Source: Planctomycetota bacterium
Lineage (GTDB): Bacteria > Planctomycetota > UBA1135 > GCA-002686595
Assembly (NCBI GenBank): GCA_012960475.1
Contig: DUBE01000056.1
Location: 4,324-68,323, forward strand
Direction: 5' to 3'
Length of the DNA: 64,000 nt
Positions 19,846-27,950 of this stretch are shown in pieces (the stretch's first letter is position 1; every line of letters begins with the position of its first letter). The notes beneath the pieces were generated by a model. The model saw only the letters and a list, made by a program, of their open reading frames with translations. It was not told the DNA's origin and ran no database searches. The position numbers and the translations under genes are program-made.

Positions 19846-19961
19846 GGGAGTCCCTCAGCGGGGAAATGGCCCCCCATTGAAACCTCTTGCAAGGCCCCCG
19901 GGGAGACTGCTGACAAGATCTTCAGTAGCTCCCCAGCCCGCGGCTAGGTACCTTAGTGTCT

Positions 19962-21434
19962 ATGGCCGCTTCCTTCGAGACCTCGCCCCAGCGAGCACTA
20001 CCCCTGTGCTGGGCGCTGATCTTTTTGACGGGGCTCGCCCCGGCGTTGCCGTTCCAGGCGGAGCCGCCCGCCGAGCACGAGACCCCGGACCACCAAGACA
20101 AGGGCAAACTGGAACGCCTGCTCTCGCGGACGCGCCAGGAGGCAGCCCTGGCAGAATCCCGCGCCCGGCGCAAGGTGACGGACCTCTTGAGTTCGACCCT
20201 GAGCAACAACCCCACCGTCCACTCCAGCCTTTTTTGGGAGCAGGTGGCACACCTGGTGAATGTGGGCCCCCCTGGGATCCCGGCCCTGATCGATGCCCTC
20301 AGCCCCCCAGTGATTCAGTTTCCGCCCCTGGAGCCTGGCCTGGACGAAGCTGCCGTCGCCCGCCGCAAGACCCAGGTGCGCGAGCAGGCAATCCTGCGCG
20401 CCTCGTCCCAGAGCCTCTCCACTTACCGGGCCGATGTCGCGGCTCACGCCCTGCGCAAATTGGCCAACCCGGTCGCCACCGACGATCTGGTTCAATTGAT
20501 CCAGACCGGAACGGGCACCGCGCGCATCCATGCTCTTCTGGCCCTGGAGTCCTGCCCCGAGCCCGAGCGCGCCGCTCCAGCCCTGATCGCCTTACTGGAC
20601 ACGACCTCCAAGCCCGCAGTCCAGCGAGCCTTGTTGATTTGCCTGGTGCGCATTGGTGGCAAGACAGCCATGGCACGGGTGCGTCACAGCCTGGATCCCA
20701 GCGACCCAACCCAAGCCACTATCGCCCTCTCTGCCCTGGCTGCAGCCGAGGTGGCTGAAGTGGCGCCCGAATTGCTGACGATTCTGCAGGGCAGCAAGGG
20801 CGGCGCTGCCATGACCGGAGTCCTGGCCTACTACCGGGCCTTTCCGGAATTGCTCGAAGACAACGATCACCTCTCGGCACTGCTCTCCATCCTGGTGGAA
20901 CGCCGAGCCACCCGCAGCCAGGTCACGGCGGCCCTCGAACTACTGCTTGAGCTGCGCGTCAAGCCCCGCGCCCGCAGCCGCACCCTGGCTGAGGAACTGA
21001 CCGAGTCCCGATCAAGTGGGGTGAGCGAACTAGCCCTCAAGTGGTTGGCGTCCACCGGCAACAAGCGAGCCCTGCGCATCCTGCTCAAACCCCTCGACAA
21101 GAACATCCAAGAGAGGCCGACCTACGGGGCTTTTCACAGCCGACGCGCGAACCTGCTCTATGAGGTAGGCGAGTACAAACACGCACTGGAGGGCTATGGC
21201 AAGGCAATTCTCATGTCCTACACGGGTCGCAGCGATGACGCTCACCTGGGAGCCGCGCGCTGCCACGCACGCCTGGGCAAGTTCAAGAGCGCGGCAAACT
21301 CCCTGCGCAACTCGTCCCTCAAGCGCTCCGAACTCTCGGACCTGCCCAACGACCCGGCCTTCAAGGAAATGGCCCGCAAAAAGCAGTATTGGGTTGAGAC
21401 GTTCTTCCGCAAGATCGAGGAACTGCCAGAATGA
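19962..21434 (+). CDS. Exported HEAT-repeat protein with a C-terminal TPR-like segment
   Basis: About 490 residues. A hydrophobic N-terminal segment (PLCWALIFLTGLAPALPF) suggests export or anchoring. The middle (about 90-330) is built of helical pairs with HEAT/armadillo character, for example ADVAAHALRKLANPVA, and the last 120 residues resemble TPR helices (YGAFHSRRANLLYEVGEY, HLGAARCHARLGKFKSA). Such proteins act as scaffolds; no catalytic residues are seen. A GTG two codons upstream is an alternative start. Its ATGA overlap with the deacetylase-like gene indicates co-translation, and the gap to mnmG is 116 bp and divergent. Confidence 0.75.
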   Translation: MAASFETSPQRALPLCWALIFLTGLAPALPFQAEPPAEHETPDHQDKGKLERLLSRTRQEAALAESRARRKVTDLLSSTLSNNPTVHSSLFWEQVAHLVNVGPPGIPALIDALSPPVIQFPPLEPGLDEAAVARRKTQVREQAILRASSQSLSTYRADVAAHALRKLANPVATDDLVQLIQTGTGTARIHALLALESCPEPERAAPALIALLDTTSKPAVQRALLICLVRIGGKTAMARVRHSLDPSDPTQATIALSALAAAEVAEVAPELLTILQGSKGGAAMTGVLAYYRAFPELLEDNDHLSALLSILVERRATRSQVTAALELLLELRVKPRARSRTLAEELTESRSSGVSELALKWLASTGNKRALRILLKPLDKNIQERPTYGAFHSRRANLLYEVGEYKHALEGYGKAILMSYTGRSDDAHLGAARCHARLGKFKSAANSLRNSSLKRSELSDLPNDPAFKEMARKKQYWVETFFRKIEELPE

Positions 21435-22375
21435 GGCCGGCCCTGGGCCTCTTCACCCATCCCGATTGTCTGCTGCATGAGAGCGGCCCGGGCAACCCGG
21501 AGCGACCCGAGCGTTTGCGGGCCCTGATCGAACACCTTGAGCAAGTTGGCCTCTGGGAAGACCTTGAGGTCCTAAAGGCGGCCCCAGCCACTTCCCTCGA
21601 CCTGGAAGCAGTTCATCGAAGGGACTATCTGCAGCGGGTGGAGACTCGCTTCCGAGAGGGCGCGAGTTTCGTGGACAGCGCCGATGCAAACGGCAACCAC
21701 GCGACCTTCGCCGCCACCCTCCTGGCATCCGGCGCCGCCCTTGAGGCCACCGGGAAAGTACTGAGCGGGGACTTGCAACGAGCCTTCGTCATGCTGCGCC
21801 CCCCGGGTCACCACGCGGAGGTGGACCAAGCAATGGGTTTTTGTTTTAGCAACCATGTGGCCCTCGCCGCCCGTGCGGCACAAGCAGCCCATGGCCTCGA
21901 GCGCGTGGCCATCGTGGACTTCGATGTGCACCATGGGAATGGAACCCAACACATCTTCGAGGAAGATGGCAATGTGTTCTACGCCAGCCTGCACCAATGG
22001 CCCCACTACCCCGGGACCGGTGCGGCAGAAGAACGTGGCATCGGAGAGGGCGAAGACACGACCCTCAACTGCCCCCTGCCCGCGGGCAGTGGCAATCGGG
22101 AGTGGCAGGCCGCCCTGGAAGAGCGCGTGCTCCCGGCCCTCGATCGCTTCGAGCCAGAATTGCTCTTGATCTCTGCTGGCTTCGACGCCCACCAACGGGA
22201 CCTGCTCTCGGAGACACGCCTTACCAGCGAGGCCTTTGGACATATGACCCGTGCCCTTGTGGATCTGGCGAATCAGCATTGCGAAGGTCGGGTGATCTCG
22301 ATTCTTGAAGGGGGCTACGACCTGGTGGGCCTCTCGGAAGGGGTCCAAGCGCACCTTGAGGTGCTCGCGAGCTAG
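21431..22375 (+). CDS. Histone-deacetylase-family (arginase-fold) amidohydrolase
   Basis: A 314-residue zinc hydrolase of the HDAC/AcuC/acetylpolyamine amidohydrolase superfamily. Visible family features are ENPERPERL-like GNPERPERLRAL, the active-site RPPGHHAEVDQAMGFCF with tandem histidines, the zinc ligands in IVDFDVHHGNGTQ and SAGFDAHQRD, and the final ILEGGYDL. It would remove acetyl groups from lysines or polyamines; the substrate is not predictable. It overlaps the upstream HEAT gene by 4 bp, which is an unusual partner and may indicate a scaffolded enzyme. Confidence 0.93.
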   Translation: MRPALGLFTHPDCLLHESGPGNPERPERLRALIEHLEQVGLWEDLEVLKAAPATSLDLEAVHRRDYLQRVETRFREGASFVDSADANGNHATFAATLLASGAALEATGKVLSGDLQRAFVMLRPPGHHAEVDQAMGFCFSNHVALAARAAQAAHGLERVAIVDFDVHHGNGTQHIFEEDGNVFYASLHQWPHYPGTGAAEERGIGEGEDTTLNCPLPAGSGNREWQAALEERVLPALDRFEPELLLISAGFDAHQRDLLSETRLTSEAFGHMTRALVDLANQHCEGRVISILEGGYDLVGLSEGVQAHLEVLAS

Positions 22376-22485
22376 AGTTCGCATGTGAGGCCAGAGCCCT
22401 GCCCCCAAAATCCTGAAGTGACTACCCCCTGGGTCGGGGACCGCTGCCAGCAACCCCCGCTCCCTGCGCCTAGAATGGGACCACC

Positions 22486-23130
22486 ATGGACGAACCGATT
22501 CACATGCTGCGCCGCCAGGCCACGGCACATACCCTTCTGGAAGAAAGCGCCGGGGACGACCCCCTGGCCCTCTTCCAGACCTGGGTTGCCGAGGCCCGCG
22601 AGGGCAGCAAGGAAGAGGAACCCACCGCCTGCAGCCTGGCCACCGTGCGTGAGGACGGGGGGCCTGCGGTGCGCATGGTGCTGCTCAAGGCGCTCGAGGA
22701 CGGGGCCTTTGTGTTCTACACCCCCATCTCCGGTCGCAAGGGCAAGGAACTCTCCCTGCGCCCCCAGGCAGCCATGTGCTTCTATTGGAATGATCTGCAC
22801 CGTCAGGTGCGCGTTGAAGGGGATGTGACCGTTGTATCCGGACCTATAGCCGACAAATACTTCGCAACTCGCCCCCGAGAGAGCCAGATCGGCGCCTGGG
22901 CCTCCCCCCAAAGCGAGGTGCTCACGGACCGCTCTGCGCTCGACGAGCGCATCAAGCAATGGACAAAGAAGTTCGAAGGGAGCGATGTCCCGCGCCCAGA
23001 TGCCTGGGGCGGCTTTGCTCTGCATCCCAAGAGCATCGAATTCTGGCAAGGTCGCGCGAGCCGTTTGCACGATCGCCTGCTATACGAACGCAACGGGGAC
23101 GCATGGACACGGATGCGCCTGGCGCCCTAG
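22486..23130 (+). CDS. pdxH: Pyridoxamine 5'-phosphate oxidase
   Basis: An FMN enzyme oxidising pyridoxamine or pyridoxine 5'-phosphate to pyridoxal 5'-phosphate. The 214 residues contain the family order: ACSLATVREDGGPAVRMVLLK, FVFYTPISGRKGKEL, FYWNDLHRQVRVEG, the segment FATRPRESQIGAWASPQS, and the C-terminal PKSIEFWQGRASRLHDRL with the PLP/FMN-contact arginines. Length matches the family. It is 110 bp after the deacetylase-like gene and 85 bp before the small ORF that opens the ATPase/nuclease cassette; it marks the housekeeping flank of that cassette. Confidence 0.96.
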   Translation: MDEPIHMLRRQATAHTLLEESAGDDPLALFQTWVAEAREGSKEEEPTACSLATVREDGGPAVRMVLLKALEDGAFVFYTPISGRKGKELSLRPQAAMCFYWNDLHRQVRVEGDVTVVSGPIADKYFATRPRESQIGAWASPQSEVLTDRSALDERIKQWTKKFEGSDVPRPDAWGGFALHPKSIEFWQGRASRLHDRLLYERNGDAWTRMRLAP

Positions 23131-23215
23131 GAACGAGCGCGAAAAATTGCCGCCGGCTTGCGACGCATTTCCTCTAGTGCGGAAGGAAGTGCGGGAGTAG
23201 AATCGCACCTGGCAA

Positions 23216-23413
23216 ATGAGAGTCCTGGACGAACTAGAAGCAAGAATTCGCAAACGCGGGGTACGGGTCGAAGAGCGACTTGAACTACTCAATCGACTCA
23301 GAAAGAGCGACCCGTCCCAAGGCCACGGCCAAGAGCAACTCAACCAGCGCCTCGCGGAATTCAAGACCGCCATCCAGGGGGCCGCAAGGGCCATCCAAAA
23401 GGAGATCCGATGA
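23216..23413 (+). CDS. Small helical protein, first gene of the ATPase/nuclease cassette
   Basis: A 65-residue, strongly charged and helical protein (MRVLDELEARIRKRGVRVEE, then FKTAIQGAARAIQKEIR) with a short Gly/Ser/Gln break in the middle. No family is recognised. Its stop overlaps the start of the SMC-like gene as ATGA, which supports translation and a functional link. It could be a small accessory subunit comparable in position to small components of SMC-like defence or repair systems; this is inference from position only. Confidence 0.6.
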   Translation: MRVLDELEARIRKRGVRVEERLELLNRLRKSDPSQGHGQEQLNQRLAEFKTAIQGAARAIQKEIR

Positions 23414-25548
23414 GTGGCGCCCCCTTCCCGGTACGGCCCACTTGCCTGGAAATTGAGAACTTCCGCGGCTTCCGAGGCGCCTGCTCACTGGACTTCGCCC
23501 AGGACCTGACCCTCCTGATGGGTGAGTGCGAGGCGGGCAAGAGCAGCATCCTCATAGCCATCGAATGGTGCCTTCTTGGAACCAGGATCGTCTCCAGCAC
23601 ATCGACAGGAATCGCCGAGCGCGGGGACTGGGTCCTCGCCAACACAGAGGCCACGGGAGAGACTCGCGTGACCCTGACGCTTGTGGTTGAGGGGGGCACC
23701 GGAAAGCTCACGCGCACACGAATGCTGGATGCCAAGCGGAACGCCCCCGACCAACTGGAGCTCACTCTCCCCGGAGAGCAGGTCCTGACAGGGAGCGAAG
23801 TGGAAGAGTGGCTGGAGTGGACGGGAATGCCCAACTGGGATACCTGGAAGCAGGCCTTCGCCCAGCACCAGGAGAGCGCCCGAGCGCGGATCACCGACCA
23901 GGGGGATCGTTCCTATCTGATCGCCAGCATGCTGGGACTGAGTGACTATCGCGACCTCAGCGCAATGCTCAAGAAGGTCAAACCCAAGGAACTGGAAGAG
24001 TGCGCGCAGGAAACTCTCCAGCACCTCGCCGAGGATCAGCAGCGTGCGCGCCAGGCTCCCCAGCAAGAGGTCAATGGGATTCAAGCATCATTGCAGCGCT
24101 TGAACGTTCCCGCCACCCAGGCCGGAGACGCCGAGTTGGAACTGAGGCGCAAAGCCCTGATCACCGACGCCCTGCCCGTGGGCGAGGCCATCGGGCTGTC
24201 AGCCGAGCAACTCCCCCACCAGGACTGGTCTGCGACCGAGGTCCACACCTGGGGCGCAGGCTGGCGCAGACAAGTGGATGCTCACCTGACCCCCCTGCGG
24301 CAGGAACTCGGCAACCTGGAGGGCAACATCCGTTCTCTCACTTCCTCCCACGAGGCATTGAATCCCAAGCGGGTGGCCCTGGCGGATGCCAGGCAACAAC
24401 TGGAGGGCCTGCGCAGCAAACATGGATCCCCGCAAGACCTGCGAGTGCAACGCGAGACCATTGCCGAGGAGCTGAGCGCCCTGCGCGAGCAGCGGCGCGA
24501 ACAAGGAGAGTTGGACAGCCTATTGCGGGAAGCCCTGGGTGTGATCAAAGCCGGTGGCAGGACTGATCAATGCCCGGTATGCACCCAGGACGCCGGAGGA
24601 TTGGAACAACGCCTGCAAGAACGAGTCACCAGCGGAGGGGATGACGTGATCCAAAACCAACTGGATCAGCTCGCAAGCCGAGACAGCGCCCTCAGCAGCC
24701 AGTTGCAGCAACTGGAGCAGGCGCAGGCCACCTTCCAGGGCACCGAAGACTCTCTCGCAAGCCTTGAGAAGACCCTGCGCGGTCAGCTGCCCCCGGGCAC
24801 GCAGGAGGAAGCAGGCGTGACCGAGCTACTGGCGGCCCTCTTGGCCCAGAAGGTGCGCCTGGAGAAGACAATCAATCTAGCGGACGAGAACCTGGCCGGC
24901 ATGACCGGAAAGCTGGAAGTCCTCGGGCTACTGCTCAACCTGCGCGCGGCCCGGGAACGAGCCGAGCACAGGGCCGGGGATCTTTCTGCCATGCCCCAGT
25001 TCGCAACCCTCCAGGACAAAATCGATGAGGCTGCGGGATTCGCCTGCGACCTGATCGCACTTGAGGTCATGGCCAGGGAATTGGAAGAGGAGCAGTCCGC
25101 CCTGCAGATCCAAGCTGTCAACCAATCCATCAACCACTACATGGCCATCATCAGCCCTGGTTTTGAACGGGTTGTGTCGGTGCACCAAAAACACACGGCC
25201 ACCAAGCTCATCTACCAGCTGGTGGACAACGCAGGCGAAAATCTCACGGGCACGCTGAACCAGGGAGCGCTCAACTCCCTCTCCCTGGCGACCTTCTTCG
25301 CCGGTGCCCAGTTCCGTGTCAAGCAGGGCCTGCCCGAGTTCTTGATTCTGGATGATCCGGTACAAAGCCTGGATCGGGCACACCAGGAGGGCCTGGCCCG
25401 AGCAGCGAAGGAATTCAGCAAGCTGGCACCGGTCATCGTCGCCTGTCTCCCCTCACACTTCACCAGGGAACTGGAACGGCTCAGAAGCACAGACGACAAG
25501 CTCTACAAGGTCCACGGCTCCGATCCCATCCAATTCGAGGAACTCTGA
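23410..25548 (+). CDS. SMC/Rad50-like ATPase with a zinc-hook motif
   Basis: A 712-residue P-loop ATPase of the SbcC/Rad50/SMC group. The N-terminus has IENFRGFRGACSLDF and Walker A GECEAGKSS (from residue 38). Two long coiled coils flank a hook motif CPVC (Cys388 and Cys391). The C-terminal half holds an ABC-signature-like LNSLSLATFFAGAQ near 617 and Walker B FLILDDPVQSLD (from residue 644), followed by a switch-histidine-like H in CLPSHFTREL. It is about two thirds of the size of SbcC, so the arms are short. It overlaps the small ORF by 4 bp and is followed after 2 bp by a nuclease-like gene, instead of sbcD. A role in sensing or processing DNA ends, or in defence, is inferred. Confidence 0.85.
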   Translation: MSGAPFPVRPTCLEIENFRGFRGACSLDFAQDLTLLMGECEAGKSSILIAIEWCLLGTRIVSSTSTGIAERGDWVLANTEATGETRVTLTLVVEGGTGKLTRTRMLDAKRNAPDQLELTLPGEQVLTGSEVEEWLEWTGMPNWDTWKQAFAQHQESARARITDQGDRSYLIASMLGLSDYRDLSAMLKKVKPKELEECAQETLQHLAEDQQRARQAPQQEVNGIQASLQRLNVPATQAGDAELELRRKALITDALPVGEAIGLSAEQLPHQDWSATEVHTWGAGWRRQVDAHLTPLRQELGNLEGNIRSLTSSHEALNPKRVALADARQQLEGLRSKHGSPQDLRVQRETIAEELSALREQRREQGELDSLLREALGVIKAGGRTDQCPVCTQDAGGLEQRLQERVTSGGDDVIQNQLDQLASRDSALSSQLQQLEQAQATFQGTEDSLASLEKTLRGQLPPGTQEEAGVTELLAALLAQKVRLEKTINLADENLAGMTGKLEVLGLLLNLRAARERAEHRAGDLSAMPQFATLQDKIDEAAGFACDLIALEVMARELEEEQSALQIQAVNQSINHYMAIISPGFERVVSVHQKHTATKLIYQLVDNAGENLTGTLNQGALNSLSLATFFAGAQFRVKQGLPEFLILDDPVQSLDRAHQEGLARAAKEFSKLAPVIVACLPSHFTRELERLRSTDDKLYKVHGSDPIQFEEL

Positions 25549-25550
25549 CC

Positions 25551-26072
25551 ATGCAGCACGAGACCCACCAAAAACTTGGGGAGATCCGCGCCAGCGTAGG
25601 AATGGAGTACGGAAAGATCCTGCAGAAGATGCTGGCGATTTCCTTGCTCGAAACCAAAGTCGAGAGCCTGGTGGAACGCAGCGTCCAAGGCATCGACTTG
25701 GAAATGGTGATTGGTGGAGAGACCTGCGCCTTCGAGGTCAAGACCTCCGAGGGCGACACGATCAAACTGAGCAGAAAAGACATTGAGGGCCTGGACCGGC
25801 AGGTGGAAGCAGGCAACCGGGCCTACATCGTGGTGCTGACCAACGGCCCCCTCGACGAATTGATCTTCGCCCGCTACCACCCAGGGGAAATCCCGGTGGG
25901 CAAGGAACTCAGTTCTTTTTTCTTTCGCGCATACCAGGAGCCAGCGCTTCAACAACGGATCAAGTCCACCTTCCCGGTTGTTGTGGACAAGTACGCCCAA
26001 ACAGCCGTCGAAGGACGCCAAGGGGGGCTCGACAAGATCCTCGAACAATATGGCGAGTGGGGCCGCGCCTAG
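25551..26072 (+). CDS. Putative PD-(D/E)xK-fold nuclease, third gene of the cassette
   Basis: A 173-residue protein. Residues 45-66 read QGIDLEMVIGGETCAFEVKT: Asp49, then Glu62-x-Lys64 on the next strand, with Glu34 in the helix before. This is the spacing of the PD-(D/E)xK core shared by restriction endonucleases and Holliday-junction resolvases. After the core come RQVEAGNRAYIVVLTNGPLD, a strand-helix unit typical of the fold, and a helical tail. The nuclease call is from motif and strand order only; no named family is recognised. It begins 2 bp after the ATPase gene, so it is very likely its partner. The downstream gene converges. Confidence 0.65.
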   Translation: MQHETHQKLGEIRASVGMEYGKILQKMLAISLLETKVESLVERSVQGIDLEMVIGGETCAFEVKTSEGDTIKLSRKDIEGLDRQVEAGNRAYIVVLTNGPLDELIFARYHPGEIPVGKELSSFFFRAYQEPALQQRIKSTFPVVVDKYAQTAVEGRQGGLDKILEQYGEWGRA

Positions 26073-26078
26073 GGACAG

Positions 26079-27950
26079 CTAGAGCGCTTCGGTATACAGC
26101 CCACCATTCTCCTTGGCCAGCAAGCGCAAGAAACGGGACTTGCGGCCCACGGAGACGCAGTGGATGACCACCTTGCGGGTGCGGTTCAGGCGCTCGATGC
26201 GGGCTCGAATTTCCTGGGTATCGATCACCACGCCATTGGAGGGCTGGCCGTCGGTGAGCAGAAAAACCGTATCCACTCGGGGATCGTCAAAAGCAAACAT
26301 CAATCCGGCCCAGACATTGGTGCCGCCCCCCATGGGAGCCCGACCCACATGCTTGAGTGCACGCTTCAGATTTTTTTCATCGAGGCGCACGAGACCATCC
26401 TCCCAAGGAAAGATGCGCGATCCGAAGAAAGCCAGGTTGAAAAGGGTTTTGTCCGAGAGACTCGGCAGCACACTCAAGATCTGATCCCGGGCTACCTCGA
26501 AACGAGTTGAGGCCTCGGGCTTCTTGCGCTCTGGGCCCTTCGGCAACATGGCCCGGCCGTTCATGGAACCCGAGCGGTCCACCACAAAGACCACGCGCTC
26601 GCTGAGCACCTGGAGCCCGTAGAAGGTGCCACGGGTCGTGCTCTTCTTCTTGCGTTTTTGCCGAGCGATTTCCGCCGTACGGGTCGCCGTGGCCTTGGGT
26701 TGCTGGAAATTCTCCCCCTCTCCATGCCACCAGGCGCGCCAACGGGCGCTGCGCGGGCCATGGTCTACCCCGGTCAAAAGCCTGAGGGCCAGGTGCATGT
26801 CCCGGGCAATGCGCGGAGTCTCGCCGTCTATGCGTTCGATCAGAAGGGGTACCGCACGCAGCCGATGCAGTAAGCCCACCTGCTCTACTACCTCCACCCG
26901 CACACGCCAGTCCTCGTCGTCCAACATCTCCAGCAATCGATCGATGGCCCCCTCCGTACGGATTTCCAGCAGAGCCACTGCAGCCCCCATGCGAATGGCG
27001 GGGTGCTTGCTGCGCGAATACTCCAGCACATCCTCAAGCCAATAGGGGTCTCCGTCGGTCAAGCGGGTGACAGCGATGAGCGCCTCGCGAAGGACCGCCG
27101 CGGGGCCGCTGCGCACCAGGGGCTCGATTTCACGCACAAAATGGGAGTAGCCGCTCTTGCCGAGAATCTCCACCGCCTTGGCGGCCAGGACTTCATCCTC
27201 GGAACGAATCATGCCTGCAATCAGTGCGCAAGCGCCCCGATCCTGCCAGCCACTGAGCACATCGAGCAGCAGGAAGCGCCAGGCGCTGCTGAACTCAGGA
27301 TCCTTGAGATAGCCCGAATACAGACGCAGGATCTTGGACCCGCGCAGCTTCTGCAGGGCTCGACGAATCGCCGTGGTGTTGCGGCCATTGGGGGTTGCGT
27401 ACTCCAACACCGCCTCAGCGGAAGCCAGGTCCGCGCGCTCGGCATAGACAGGCAAGAGGGCACGCACCGCAGTGCTACGCGCCTCTCGATCCTGCGCACG
27501 GGCCACAATCTTGTCCAATTCAGCGGCCGCGTTGGCACCCAGGCGCGCCAAGGACGCGGTGGCCGCCACTCTGTTGATGCTGCGCCTATGGCGCAGGGCC
27601 GCATCAAGCAGAAACTTACGCGAGTTCTTTTGATTGGGCGTGCCCTCAAAAGCCCCAAAAGCCCGGTAAGCCGCCGTCAGAGGCCAACGATCGCTGAGAA
27701 AAGTCACCGTCTGCTTGAGGGCCTTGAAGGCCCCCGGATCCCCAGACCCGGCGATAGCCGCAAAGACTTCCTGGTCCACGGCATCCTTTTCCTGTGAGAC
27801 GCGACGCAAGAGGCCACGCACATCAACGCCCGTGCTCGGGCTCTGAGCGAAGATCGAGGCCGGGGGACCAGGAGCACATCGAAGCGCCAGCGCATGACTG
27901 CACGGCAATCCTGGAACCAGGGCCAGCAAGAGGAGGAACACAAGTTTCAT
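26079..27950 (-). CDS. Exported HEAT-repeat protein with a C-terminal VWA domain
   Basis: A 623-residue protein with a signal peptide (KLVFLLLLALVPGLPCSHA). Residues about 60-400 are HEAT-like helical repeats (for example AIRMGAAVALLEIRTEG and DWRVRVEVVEQVGLLHRL). The C-terminal VWA domain (about 450-615) has the metal-site motif VFVVDRSGSMNG, then the threonine/aspartate segments around GGTNVWAGL and FLLTDGQPSNG. VWA domains bind ligands through a Mg2+ ion; with HEAT repeats they often act as periplasmic scaffolds. Its 3' end meets the nuclease-like gene 6 bp away, convergently, marking the edge of that cassette. Confidence 0.85.
   Translation of the reverse strand: MKLVFLLLLALVPGLPCSHALALRCAPGPPASIFAQSPSTGVDVRGLLRRVSQEKDAVDQEVFAAIAGSGDPGAFKALKQTVTFLSDRWPLTAAYRAFGAFEGTPNQKNSRKFLLDAALRHRRSINRVAATASLARLGANAAAELDKIVARAQDREARSTAVRALLPVYAERADLASAEAVLEYATPNGRNTTAIRRALQKLRGSKILRLYSGYLKDPEFSSAWRFLLLDVLSGWQDRGACALIAGMIRSEDEVLAAKAVEILGKSGYSHFVREIEPLVRSGPAAVLREALIAVTRLTDGDPYWLEDVLEYSRSKHPAIRMGAAVALLEIRTEGAIDRLLEMLDDEDWRVRVEVVEQVGLLHRLRAVPLLIERIDGETPRIARDMHLALRLLTGVDHGPRSARWRAWWHGEGENFQQPKATATRTAEIARQKRKKKSTTRGTFYGLQVLSERVVFVVDRSGSMNGRAMLPKGPERKKPEASTRFEVARDQILSVLPSLSDKTLFNLAFFGSRIFPWEDGLVRLDEKNLKRALKHVGRAPMGGGTNVWAGLMFAFDDPRVDTVFLLTDGQPSNGVVIDTQEIRARIERLNRTRKVVIHCVSVGRKSRFLRLLAKENGGLYTEAL

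What the first reader, a model, noticed from the sequence alone, without database searches (positions are those of the whole stretch)
23216..26072. Three-gene cassette: small helical protein, zinc-hook SMC-like ATPase, PD-(D/E)xK-like protein
Seen: overlaps of 4 bp and a gap of 2 bp join a 65-residue protein, a 712-residue ATPase (Walker A GECEAGKSS, hook CPVC, Walker B ILDDPVQSLD) and a 173-residue protein with D-x12-E-x-K. It sits between pdxH and a HEAT-VWA gene. Known: Lamassu (LmuA/B/C) and ABC-3C systems combine an SMC-like ATPase with an effector nuclease and a small protein. Here order and sizes differ, and it is not sbcC-sbcD. Inference: a defence or DNA-end-processing system, possibly a new type.
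Basis: partly seen in the sequence, partly recalled or inferred. Interest (0 to 1): 0.75.

Follow-up and report, generated by a model that had tools for sequence, protein, structure and literature searches.

The report
Rad50-like ATPase with resolvase-type nuclease
A compact three-gene cassette (small helical protein, zinc-hook Rad50-like ATPase, and a nuclease shaped like a Holliday-junction resolvase) recurs in the same order in about a dozen bacterial phyla and two archaeal records, is inserted or missing between close relatives and sometimes lies beside phage-defence genes, so it is probably an undescribed immune (or DNA-end-processing) machine related to, but distinct from, Lamassu.

Summary
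The triad is under purifying selection and is a recurrent unit: 24 of 27 relatives of the ATPase found across GTDB species have the same nuclease directly downstream, and nearly all have a 60-84-residue helical ORF directly upstream. They come from about a dozen bacterial phyla and two archaeal records. In the window's genus the cassette is a clean insertion: two relatives have pdxH and the HEAT-VWA gene only 21 bp apart. The ATPase is a short Rad50 with an invariant CPxC zinc hook and an unusual Walker B (LDDPxQ). The third protein folds with high confidence as a PD-(D/E)xK nuclease, closest to archaeal Hjc. It is not Lamassu: genuine Lamassu operons from the same phylum have A-C-B order, a DQ Walker B, a ~400-aa effector and a ~160-aa LmuC, and none of the three proteins matches as family. 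Several distant copies lie near SIR2-HerA, OLD, AbiU, Cas3 or a DNA methylase; the window copy does not. Best reading: a Rad50-type sensor that licenses a resolvase-type nuclease against foreign DNA. Mobile DNA repair is the main rival. New variant of the known SMC/Rad50-plus-nuclease kind. No function is shown by experiment.

The parts
23131..23215 (+). 85-bp stretch between pdxH and the first gene of the cassette; part of the insertion relative to the empty sites, presumably holds the promoter
   Evidence: Comparison with G001 and G004, where pdxH and the HEAT-VWA gene are 21 bp apart; promoter role is inference
23216..23413 (+). small helical protein, 65 aa (putative adaptor)
   Evidence: homologues or positional equivalents of 60-84 aa upstream of the ATPase in 21 other loci; no match in Pfam above cut-off, NCBIfam, PADLOC or PDB by sequence
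23410..25548 (+). Rad50/SMC-like ABC ATPase with zinc hook, 712 aa
23521..23547 (+). Walker A (GECEAGKSS)
   Evidence: G38, G43, K44, S45 invariant in 23 homologues
24571..24582 (+). zinc hook CPVC at the tip of the coiled coil
   Evidence: C388, P389, C391 invariant in 23 of 23; loop between long helices in the model
25345..25374 (+). Walker B and D-loop (ILDDPVQSLD); Asp where Rad50 has catalytic Glu and Lamassu LmuB has Gln
   Evidence: D648, D649, P650, Q652 invariant; LmuB has DQP in five of six genuine copies and DQV in the sixth
25551..26072 (+). PD-(D/E)xK nuclease, Hjc/RecU-like fold, 173 aa
   Evidence: AF2 pLDDT 92.9; Foldseek and VIA best matches archaeal Hjc, Z 11.4; profile match to Hjc 1gef E 1.4e-5
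25623..25625 (+). Q25, invariant residue in the N-terminal helix of the nuclease
   Evidence: invariant in 21 nucleases
25695..25697 (+). catalytic D49
   Evidence: invariant in 21
25734..25742 (+). catalytic E62-V-K64
   Evidence: E62 invariant; V63 and K64 nearly invariant

Best explanation
The cassette encodes a complex in which a short, zinc-hook-dimerised Rad50-like ATPase scans or clamps DNA and, on meeting an aberrant structure (a free end, hairpin, fork or recombination intermediate, as invading phage or plasmid DNA produces), licenses a small Holliday-junction-resolvase-type PD-(D/E)xK nuclease to cut; the 60-84-residue helical protein is the adaptor that docks nuclease and ATPase. 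It is an accessory immune module moved between phyla. Shown here: gene unit, motifs, predicted folds, selection, patchy distribution, defence neighbours at some loci. Inferred: complex formation, DNA-structure sensing, nuclease activation, the adaptor role, anti-invader function. Walker B carries Asp in place of the catalytic Glu, so ATP hydrolysis is expected to be slow and to act as a switch (inference).
For: Recurrent triad in about a dozen bacterial phyla and two archaeal records, with a single nuclease copy per genome in 18 of 18 genomes with a match. Invariant Walker A, hook and Walker B and nuclease site D-E-(x)K plus Q. AF2 nuclease model pLDDT 92.9 with Hjc as best fold; ATPase model matches Rad50 heads, Z about 29. 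Purifying selection. Insertion between pdxH and the HEAT-VWA gene in 3 congeners, empty sites in 2. Present in 3 of 392 planctomycete genomes, 2 of them congeners, and 2 of 350 genomes of another phylum. Tree groups cut across phyla. Neighbours: SIR2-HerA 325 bp upstream (L047), OLD 0.9 kb downstream (L057), AbiU (L049), Cas3 (L061), N6 DNA methylase 133 bp downstream (L056). Among the 25 families shown for random stretches of the same genomes, only kinase-type and MkoA families appear.
Against: The window copy itself has no known defence gene beside it (pdxH, a histone-deacetylase family gene and HEAT proteins), and several other copies have no recognisable defence neighbour. No match in plasmids, phages or viral contigs, so mobility is inferred only from trees and empty sites. 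A copy without the nuclease sits behind an Mre11-like phosphoesterase and a second large SMC-like ATPase (L010/L038), which points to DNA-end processing. The Moorena copies share one neighbourhood, so there the locus is stable. The neighbour control is small and not a formal enrichment test.
Confidence: 0.58

Rival explanations
1. A horizontally mobile DNA-repair or end-processing module: a Rad50-like ATPase that uses an Hjc-type nuclease instead of Mre11 to process breaks, hairpins or recombination intermediates of the host's own DNA.
For: The closest solved relatives of both enzymes are repair proteins (Rad50 and Hjc). In L010/L038 the small-ATPase pair follows an Mre11-like and a large SMC-like gene. 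No SbcD passes the family cut-off in any genome of the genus, so a gap in end processing may exist. The window copy lies among housekeeping-type genes.
Against: Absent from close relatives that equally lack a clear SbcD (G001 and G004 have empty sites), so it is not a steady replacement; very sparse; several copies lie beside SIR2-HerA, OLD, AbiU, Cas3 or an R-M-type methylase.
Confidence: 0.27
2. A divergent Lamassu (ABC-3C) system in which small protein = LmuC, ATPase = LmuB, nuclease = LmuA.
For: PADLOC LmuB model PDLC03859 hits the ATPase at 7.6e-30 and all 23 homologues; same three kinds of component; a Lamassu LmuB structure (9hqx) is among the Foldseek matches.
Against: That model scores genuine planctomycete LmuB at 1e-100 to 1e-140 and long SMC-like proteins (1198-1407-aa frames) at 1e-20 to 1e-26; the window scores 2e-29. 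Genuine operons are A-C-B with 160-185-aa LmuC and 385-428-aa LmuA; reciprocal profiles find no LmuA-nuclease or LmuC-small relationship, and LmuB aligns only around the P-loop. The LmuB Walker B is DQ in all six, here DDP in all.
Confidence: 0.05
3. A relative of the CxC/PbeC-DndE (phosphorothioate-linked) ABC-ATPase systems, with the small protein as a DndE equivalent.
For: PbeC models hit all 23 homologues weakly (best 1e-18); PbeC also has a zinc hook and a small DNA-binding partner (PMC10853773).
Against: PbeC is defined by a CxC hook; here it is CPxC in 23 of 23. No DndE match for the small protein in Pfam, NCBIfam or PADLOC, and no DndA-C or HKD-helicase genes were seen nearby.
Confidence: 0.04

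Closest known systems
Rad50-Mre11 / SbcCD
   Same: Short Rad50-type head, coiled coil and CPxC zinc hook; best structural and sequence match (Z about 29; profile E 1.2e-29); nuclease encoded in the same operon
   Different: Nuclease is PD-(D/E)xK (Hjc-like), not the Mre11 metallophosphoesterase; extra 65-aa gene; Walker B LDDPxQ instead of a DE-type motif; accessory and sparse
Lamassu (LmuACB / DdmABC, ABC-3C)
   Same: SMC/Rad50-like ATPase of about 650-700 aa, often with a hook, plus a nuclease and a small protein in one operon
   Different: Gene order small-ATPase-nuclease instead of A-C-B; nuclease 173 aa without the ~400-aa LmuA architecture; small protein 65 aa versus ~165 aa; DDP versus DQ Walker B; no family-level sequence match
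Archaeal Hjc / RecU Holliday-junction resolvases
   Same: Fold and active-site layout of the third protein (Z 11.4 for Hjc, 9.4 for RecU; Pfam Hjc hits in 14 of 21 at E up to 0.1)
   Different: Long N- and C-terminal helices (residues 3-33 and 131-165); Gln (Q25) in the helix near where Hjc has a Glu (position inferred from the aligned ranges); always encoded behind a Rad50-like ATPase in the genomes examined
Wadjet (JetABCD) / MksBEFG
   Same: SMC-type ATPase with an effector nuclease; Jet structures among the matches
   Different: No kleisin or KITE genes, no Toprim nuclease, zinc hook instead of hinge
CxC-DndE / PbeABCD
   Same: Hooked coiled-coil ABC ATPase with an obligate small partner
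   Different: CxC versus CPxC hook, different partner, no HKD-helicase or sulphur-modification genes

Membership tests
Lamassu (LmuABC) | ATPase belongs to LmuB at family level | tested here: not met
   Genuine LmuB score 1e-100 to 1e-140 to PDLC03859, window 2e-29, long SMC-like proteins up to 3e-26; A4 profile finds no full-length LmuB match, HH alignment covers 90 columns around the P-loop
Lamassu (LmuABC) | Walker B catalytic Glu replaced by Gln (DQ) | tested here: not met
   DQ in six of six genuine LmuB (DQP in five, DQV in one); DDP invariant in 23 triad ATPases
Lamassu (LmuABC) | LmuA effector with N-terminal enzymatic and C-terminal docking domain | tested here: not met
   Third protein is 161-198 aa in all homologues, one nuclease domain; LmuA of 385-428 aa; HH probability 0.6%
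Lamassu (LmuABC) | LmuC middle component, order A-C-B | tested here: not met
   Small protein 60-84 aa, first in the operon, no LmuC similarity
Rad50 / SMC-like coiled-coil ABC ATPases | Split ABC head with Walker A/B and long coiled coil closed by a zinc hook | tested here: met
   (coiled coil and hook position from a predicted model)
SbcCD / Mre11-Rad50 complex | Mre11/SbcD metallophosphoesterase partner | tested here: not met
   Neighbour is a PD-(D/E)xK protein; TIGR00619 finds no SbcD in the own genome. One relative (L038) does have a calcineurin-like gene upstream, with another ATPase between
PD-(D/E)xK nucleases, Hjc-like | Core fold with D and ExK in place | tested here: met
   AF2 pLDDT 92.9, strands 50-54 and 57-65 lie at D49, E62, K64; Hjc best match
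PD-(D/E)xK nucleases, Hjc-like | Structure-specific cleavage of four-way junctions | not testable with these tools
   needs biochemistry
CxC/PbeC-DndE systems | CxC zinc hook | tested here: not met
   CPxC in 23 of 23; definition from PMC10853773
CxC/PbeC-DndE systems | DndE partner with two RHH domains | tested here: inconclusive
   No family match for the small protein; its structure was not predicted
Wadjet/MksBEFG | Kleisin and KITE subunits, Toprim JetD | tested here: not met
   Operon has three genes, none of these
Anti-phage defence systems (by association) | Located among other defence genes in a notable share of genomes | tested here: inconclusive
   Five of about 17 loci with usable flanks (L047, L049, L056, L057, L061); small control
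Anti-phage defence systems (by association) | Protects a host against phage or plasmid | not testable with these tools
   experiment needed

The most novel reading that the evidence does not exclude
A separate, ancient class of Rad50-type immunity, spread across bacteria and archaea, in which a zinc-hook Rad50 works with a Holliday-junction-resolvase-type nuclease through a ~65-residue adaptor, standing beside Wadjet and Lamassu as an independent branch between DNA repair and DNA-sensing immunity.
Probability: 0.4. Interest if true: 0.78.

Novelty: new variant of a known kind. Interest (0 to 1): 0.62.

Why it matters
SMC/Rad50-type ATPases are now known as DNA-shape sensors in immunity (Wadjet, Lamassu). 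A third architecture that keeps the Rad50 zinc hook but swaps Mre11 for a resolvase-like nuclease, with a tiny adaptor, would show that repair ATPases were recruited to immunity more than once and would give a minimal (three short genes, about 2.9 kb) system in which to test how structure sensing is coupled to cutting. If it is repair instead, it is a transferable, Mre11-free end-processing machine, which would also be unexpected.

Tried and rejected
Lamassu membership: looked strong from the PADLOC hit but failed the control with genuine planctomycete Lamassu operons and long SMC-like proteins. SbcCD: SbcC model gives only a weak head match, no SbcD. PbeC/DndE: hook type and partner differ. 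Phage or plasmid carriage: no hits; the weak plasmid hits for one homologue are 23% identical over 41% of the query and are generic AAA ATPases. A viral scan with the nuclease alignment could not be run (too divergent). The small protein's Pfam MLKL_N hit (E 0.008, below cut-off) and PDB helical hits are ordinary helix matches. VIA-align did not list Lamassu among its top rows for the ATPase; this is no evidence against. Literature: no description of this triad found; the ABC-ATPase classification of Krishnan et al. 2020 and the Lamassu structure paper of Haudiquet et al. 2025 are not held, so prior mention there cannot be excluded.

Full report
Observation. The ATPase matches Pfam AAA_23/SMC_N; the nuclease gives only a sub-threshold Hjc hit; the 65-aa protein matches nothing credible. 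The upstream neighbours are a HEAT gene, a histone-deacetylase family gene and pdxH; the downstream neighbour is the convergent HEAT-VWA gene.

Accessory locus. In seven genomes of the genus, the ATPase is present only in the window's genome and two 92%-identical congeners, G003 and G005, at the same site. In G001 and G004 pdxH and the HEAT-VWA gene are 21 bp apart, so the whole 2.9-kb cassette is missing; G006 has an unrelated stretch there, and G002 gave no pdxH match. Gain in the carriers' ancestor and loss elsewhere fit equally well. Composition is that of the host (61.2% versus 62.1% G+C). Between congeners dN/dS is 0.15-0.22 for the ATPase, 0.15-0.16 for the nuclease and 0.20 for the small gene, so all three are maintained.

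A recurrent triad. One scan of 84,980 species genomes with the ATPase alignment returned 27 loci. A nuclease profile built from four sequences finds the nuclease directly downstream in 24 of them (one cut by the contig end); the exceptions are L038, L059 and L060. A 60-84-aa ORF precedes the ATPase in nearly all, usually overlapping or within 15 bp. The distant small proteins are joined by position and pattern more than by sequence: only about seven lineages pass a confident profile match, the rest are weak. Hosts by record title include Planctomycetota, Myxococcota, Pseudomonadota, Cyanobacteriota, Chloroflexota, Acidobacteriota, Nitrospirota, Cloacimonadota, Kryptonia, WOR-3 and two archaeal records; most are MAGs and a few contigs are short, so individual labels may be wrong. 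Eighteen of 19 host genomes searched carry exactly one copy of the nuclease. Prevalence is low: 3 of 392 genomes of the window's phylum and 2 of 350 of another. ATPase, nuclease and small-protein divergences are correlated (Mantel r 0.81 and 0.78) and tree groups mix phyla, e.g. the G024 planctomycete with a myxococcote, and a euryarchaeon with an acidobacterium.

Structure and motifs. Across 23 ATPases the Walker A, the CPxC hook and LDDPxQ are invariant or nearly so. The model (pLDDT 85.6) has an ABC head, coiled-coil arms and the hook loop at the tip; Rad50 heads are the best matches (Z 29.9 for 5da9, 355 residues aligned, 5.3 A rmsd), and a profile search of PDB sequences ranks archaeal Rad50 first at 1.2e-29. 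The nuclease model (pLDDT 92.9) has the alpha-beta-beta-beta-alpha-beta core with D49, E62 and K64 at the expected strands. Archaeal Hjc tops both Foldseek (E 1.2e-4) and VIA (Z 11.4, 113 residues, 3.0 A), RecU follows, and SPARDA effector-nuclease chains appear lower at Z about 6-7. Q25 is invariant near where Hjc has its helix Glu (position inferred, not measured).

Not Lamassu. PADLOC calls the ATPase LmuB at 7.6e-30, which would tempt one to file it there. As a control I searched 294 planctomycete genomes with that same model. Six proteins score 1e-99 to 1e-140, and proteins with 1198-1407-aa frames, most likely chromosomal SMC, score 1e-20 to 3e-26. The window sits just above the latter. 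The six high scorers lie in classic lmuA-lmuC-lmuB operons (385-428, ~160-185, 645-673 aa). Their Walker B is DQP in five and DQV in one, matching the published Glu-to-Gln feature (PMC10586767). Reciprocal profile and HH comparisons show no LmuA-nuclease or LmuC-small similarity and only P-loop similarity for LmuB.

Neighbours. SIR2-HerA lies 325 bp upstream in L047; an OLD nuclease 0.9 kb downstream in L057; AbiU in L049; Cas3 in L061; an N6 DNA methylase 133 bp downstream in L056, with a PDDEXK_1 gene and TRIP13-like AAA upstream. Random stretches of the same genomes gave kinase-type and MkoA hits among the 25 of 33 families shown. This is suggestive, not a statistical test; the window copy has no defence neighbour. 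In L038/L010 the small-ATPase pair has lost (or never had) the nuclease and follows a calcineurin-like gene and a second 1224-aa SMC-like gene, which keeps the repair reading alive.

Mechanism (inference). By analogy with Mre11-Rad50 and Lamassu: hook-joined ATPase dimers clamp DNA; end or structure binding with ATP exposes or positions the resolvase-type nuclease; the helical protein bridges them, as the Rad50-binding helices of Mre11 do. The Asp in Walker B suggests slow hydrolysis, hence a switch. None of these steps has been shown.

Verdict. The finding is real and interesting, probably an undescribed Rad50-type nuclease system. I classify it as a new variant of a known kind, with defence favoured over mobile repair at roughly two to one.

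Noticed in passing
L010:5496-11503 (G024) and L038:285-8130 (SMVQ01000090.1): Small protein + hook ATPase without the Hjc-like nuclease, directly behind a calcineurin-like (Mre11/YhaO-type) gene and a 1224-aa YhaN/SbcC-like ATPase: an apparent link between the triad and an Mre11-Rad50-like pair.
   Followed up: partly
L056:4863-10490: Triad flanked by a PDDEXK_1 gene upstream and an N6 DNA methyltransferase 133 bp downstream; could be a modification-linked version of the system.
   Followed up: partly
L061:8700-9860; L039:3-617; L049:5333-5650: Transposase-like ORFs close to the triad (integrase core by Pfam in L061; the other two judged by eye only), suggesting how it moves.
   Followed up: partly
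L123-L128: Six genuine Lamassu lmuA-lmuC-lmuB operons in planctomycete genomes, useful as in-phylum references.
   Followed up: yes
L133:4130-6550 (G109:C43): An 806-aa hook ATPase that matches the triad ATPase profile (E 1e-29) but sits among different small genes: perhaps a sister system.
   Followed up: no
L059:5825-8475: Dehalococcoidia locus with a 58-aa ORF overlapping an 825-aa relative of the ATPase but no nuclease detected downstream.
   Followed up: no
window 19956-27950: HEAT-repeat and HEAT-VWA genes flank the site; the genus has many paralogues of the HEAT-VWA gene.
   Followed up: no
G006, L031:1248-2005: At the same pdxH/HEAT-VWA junction a more distant congener has an unrelated stretch of about 0.78 kb, so the junction seems permissive for insertion.
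   Followed up: partly
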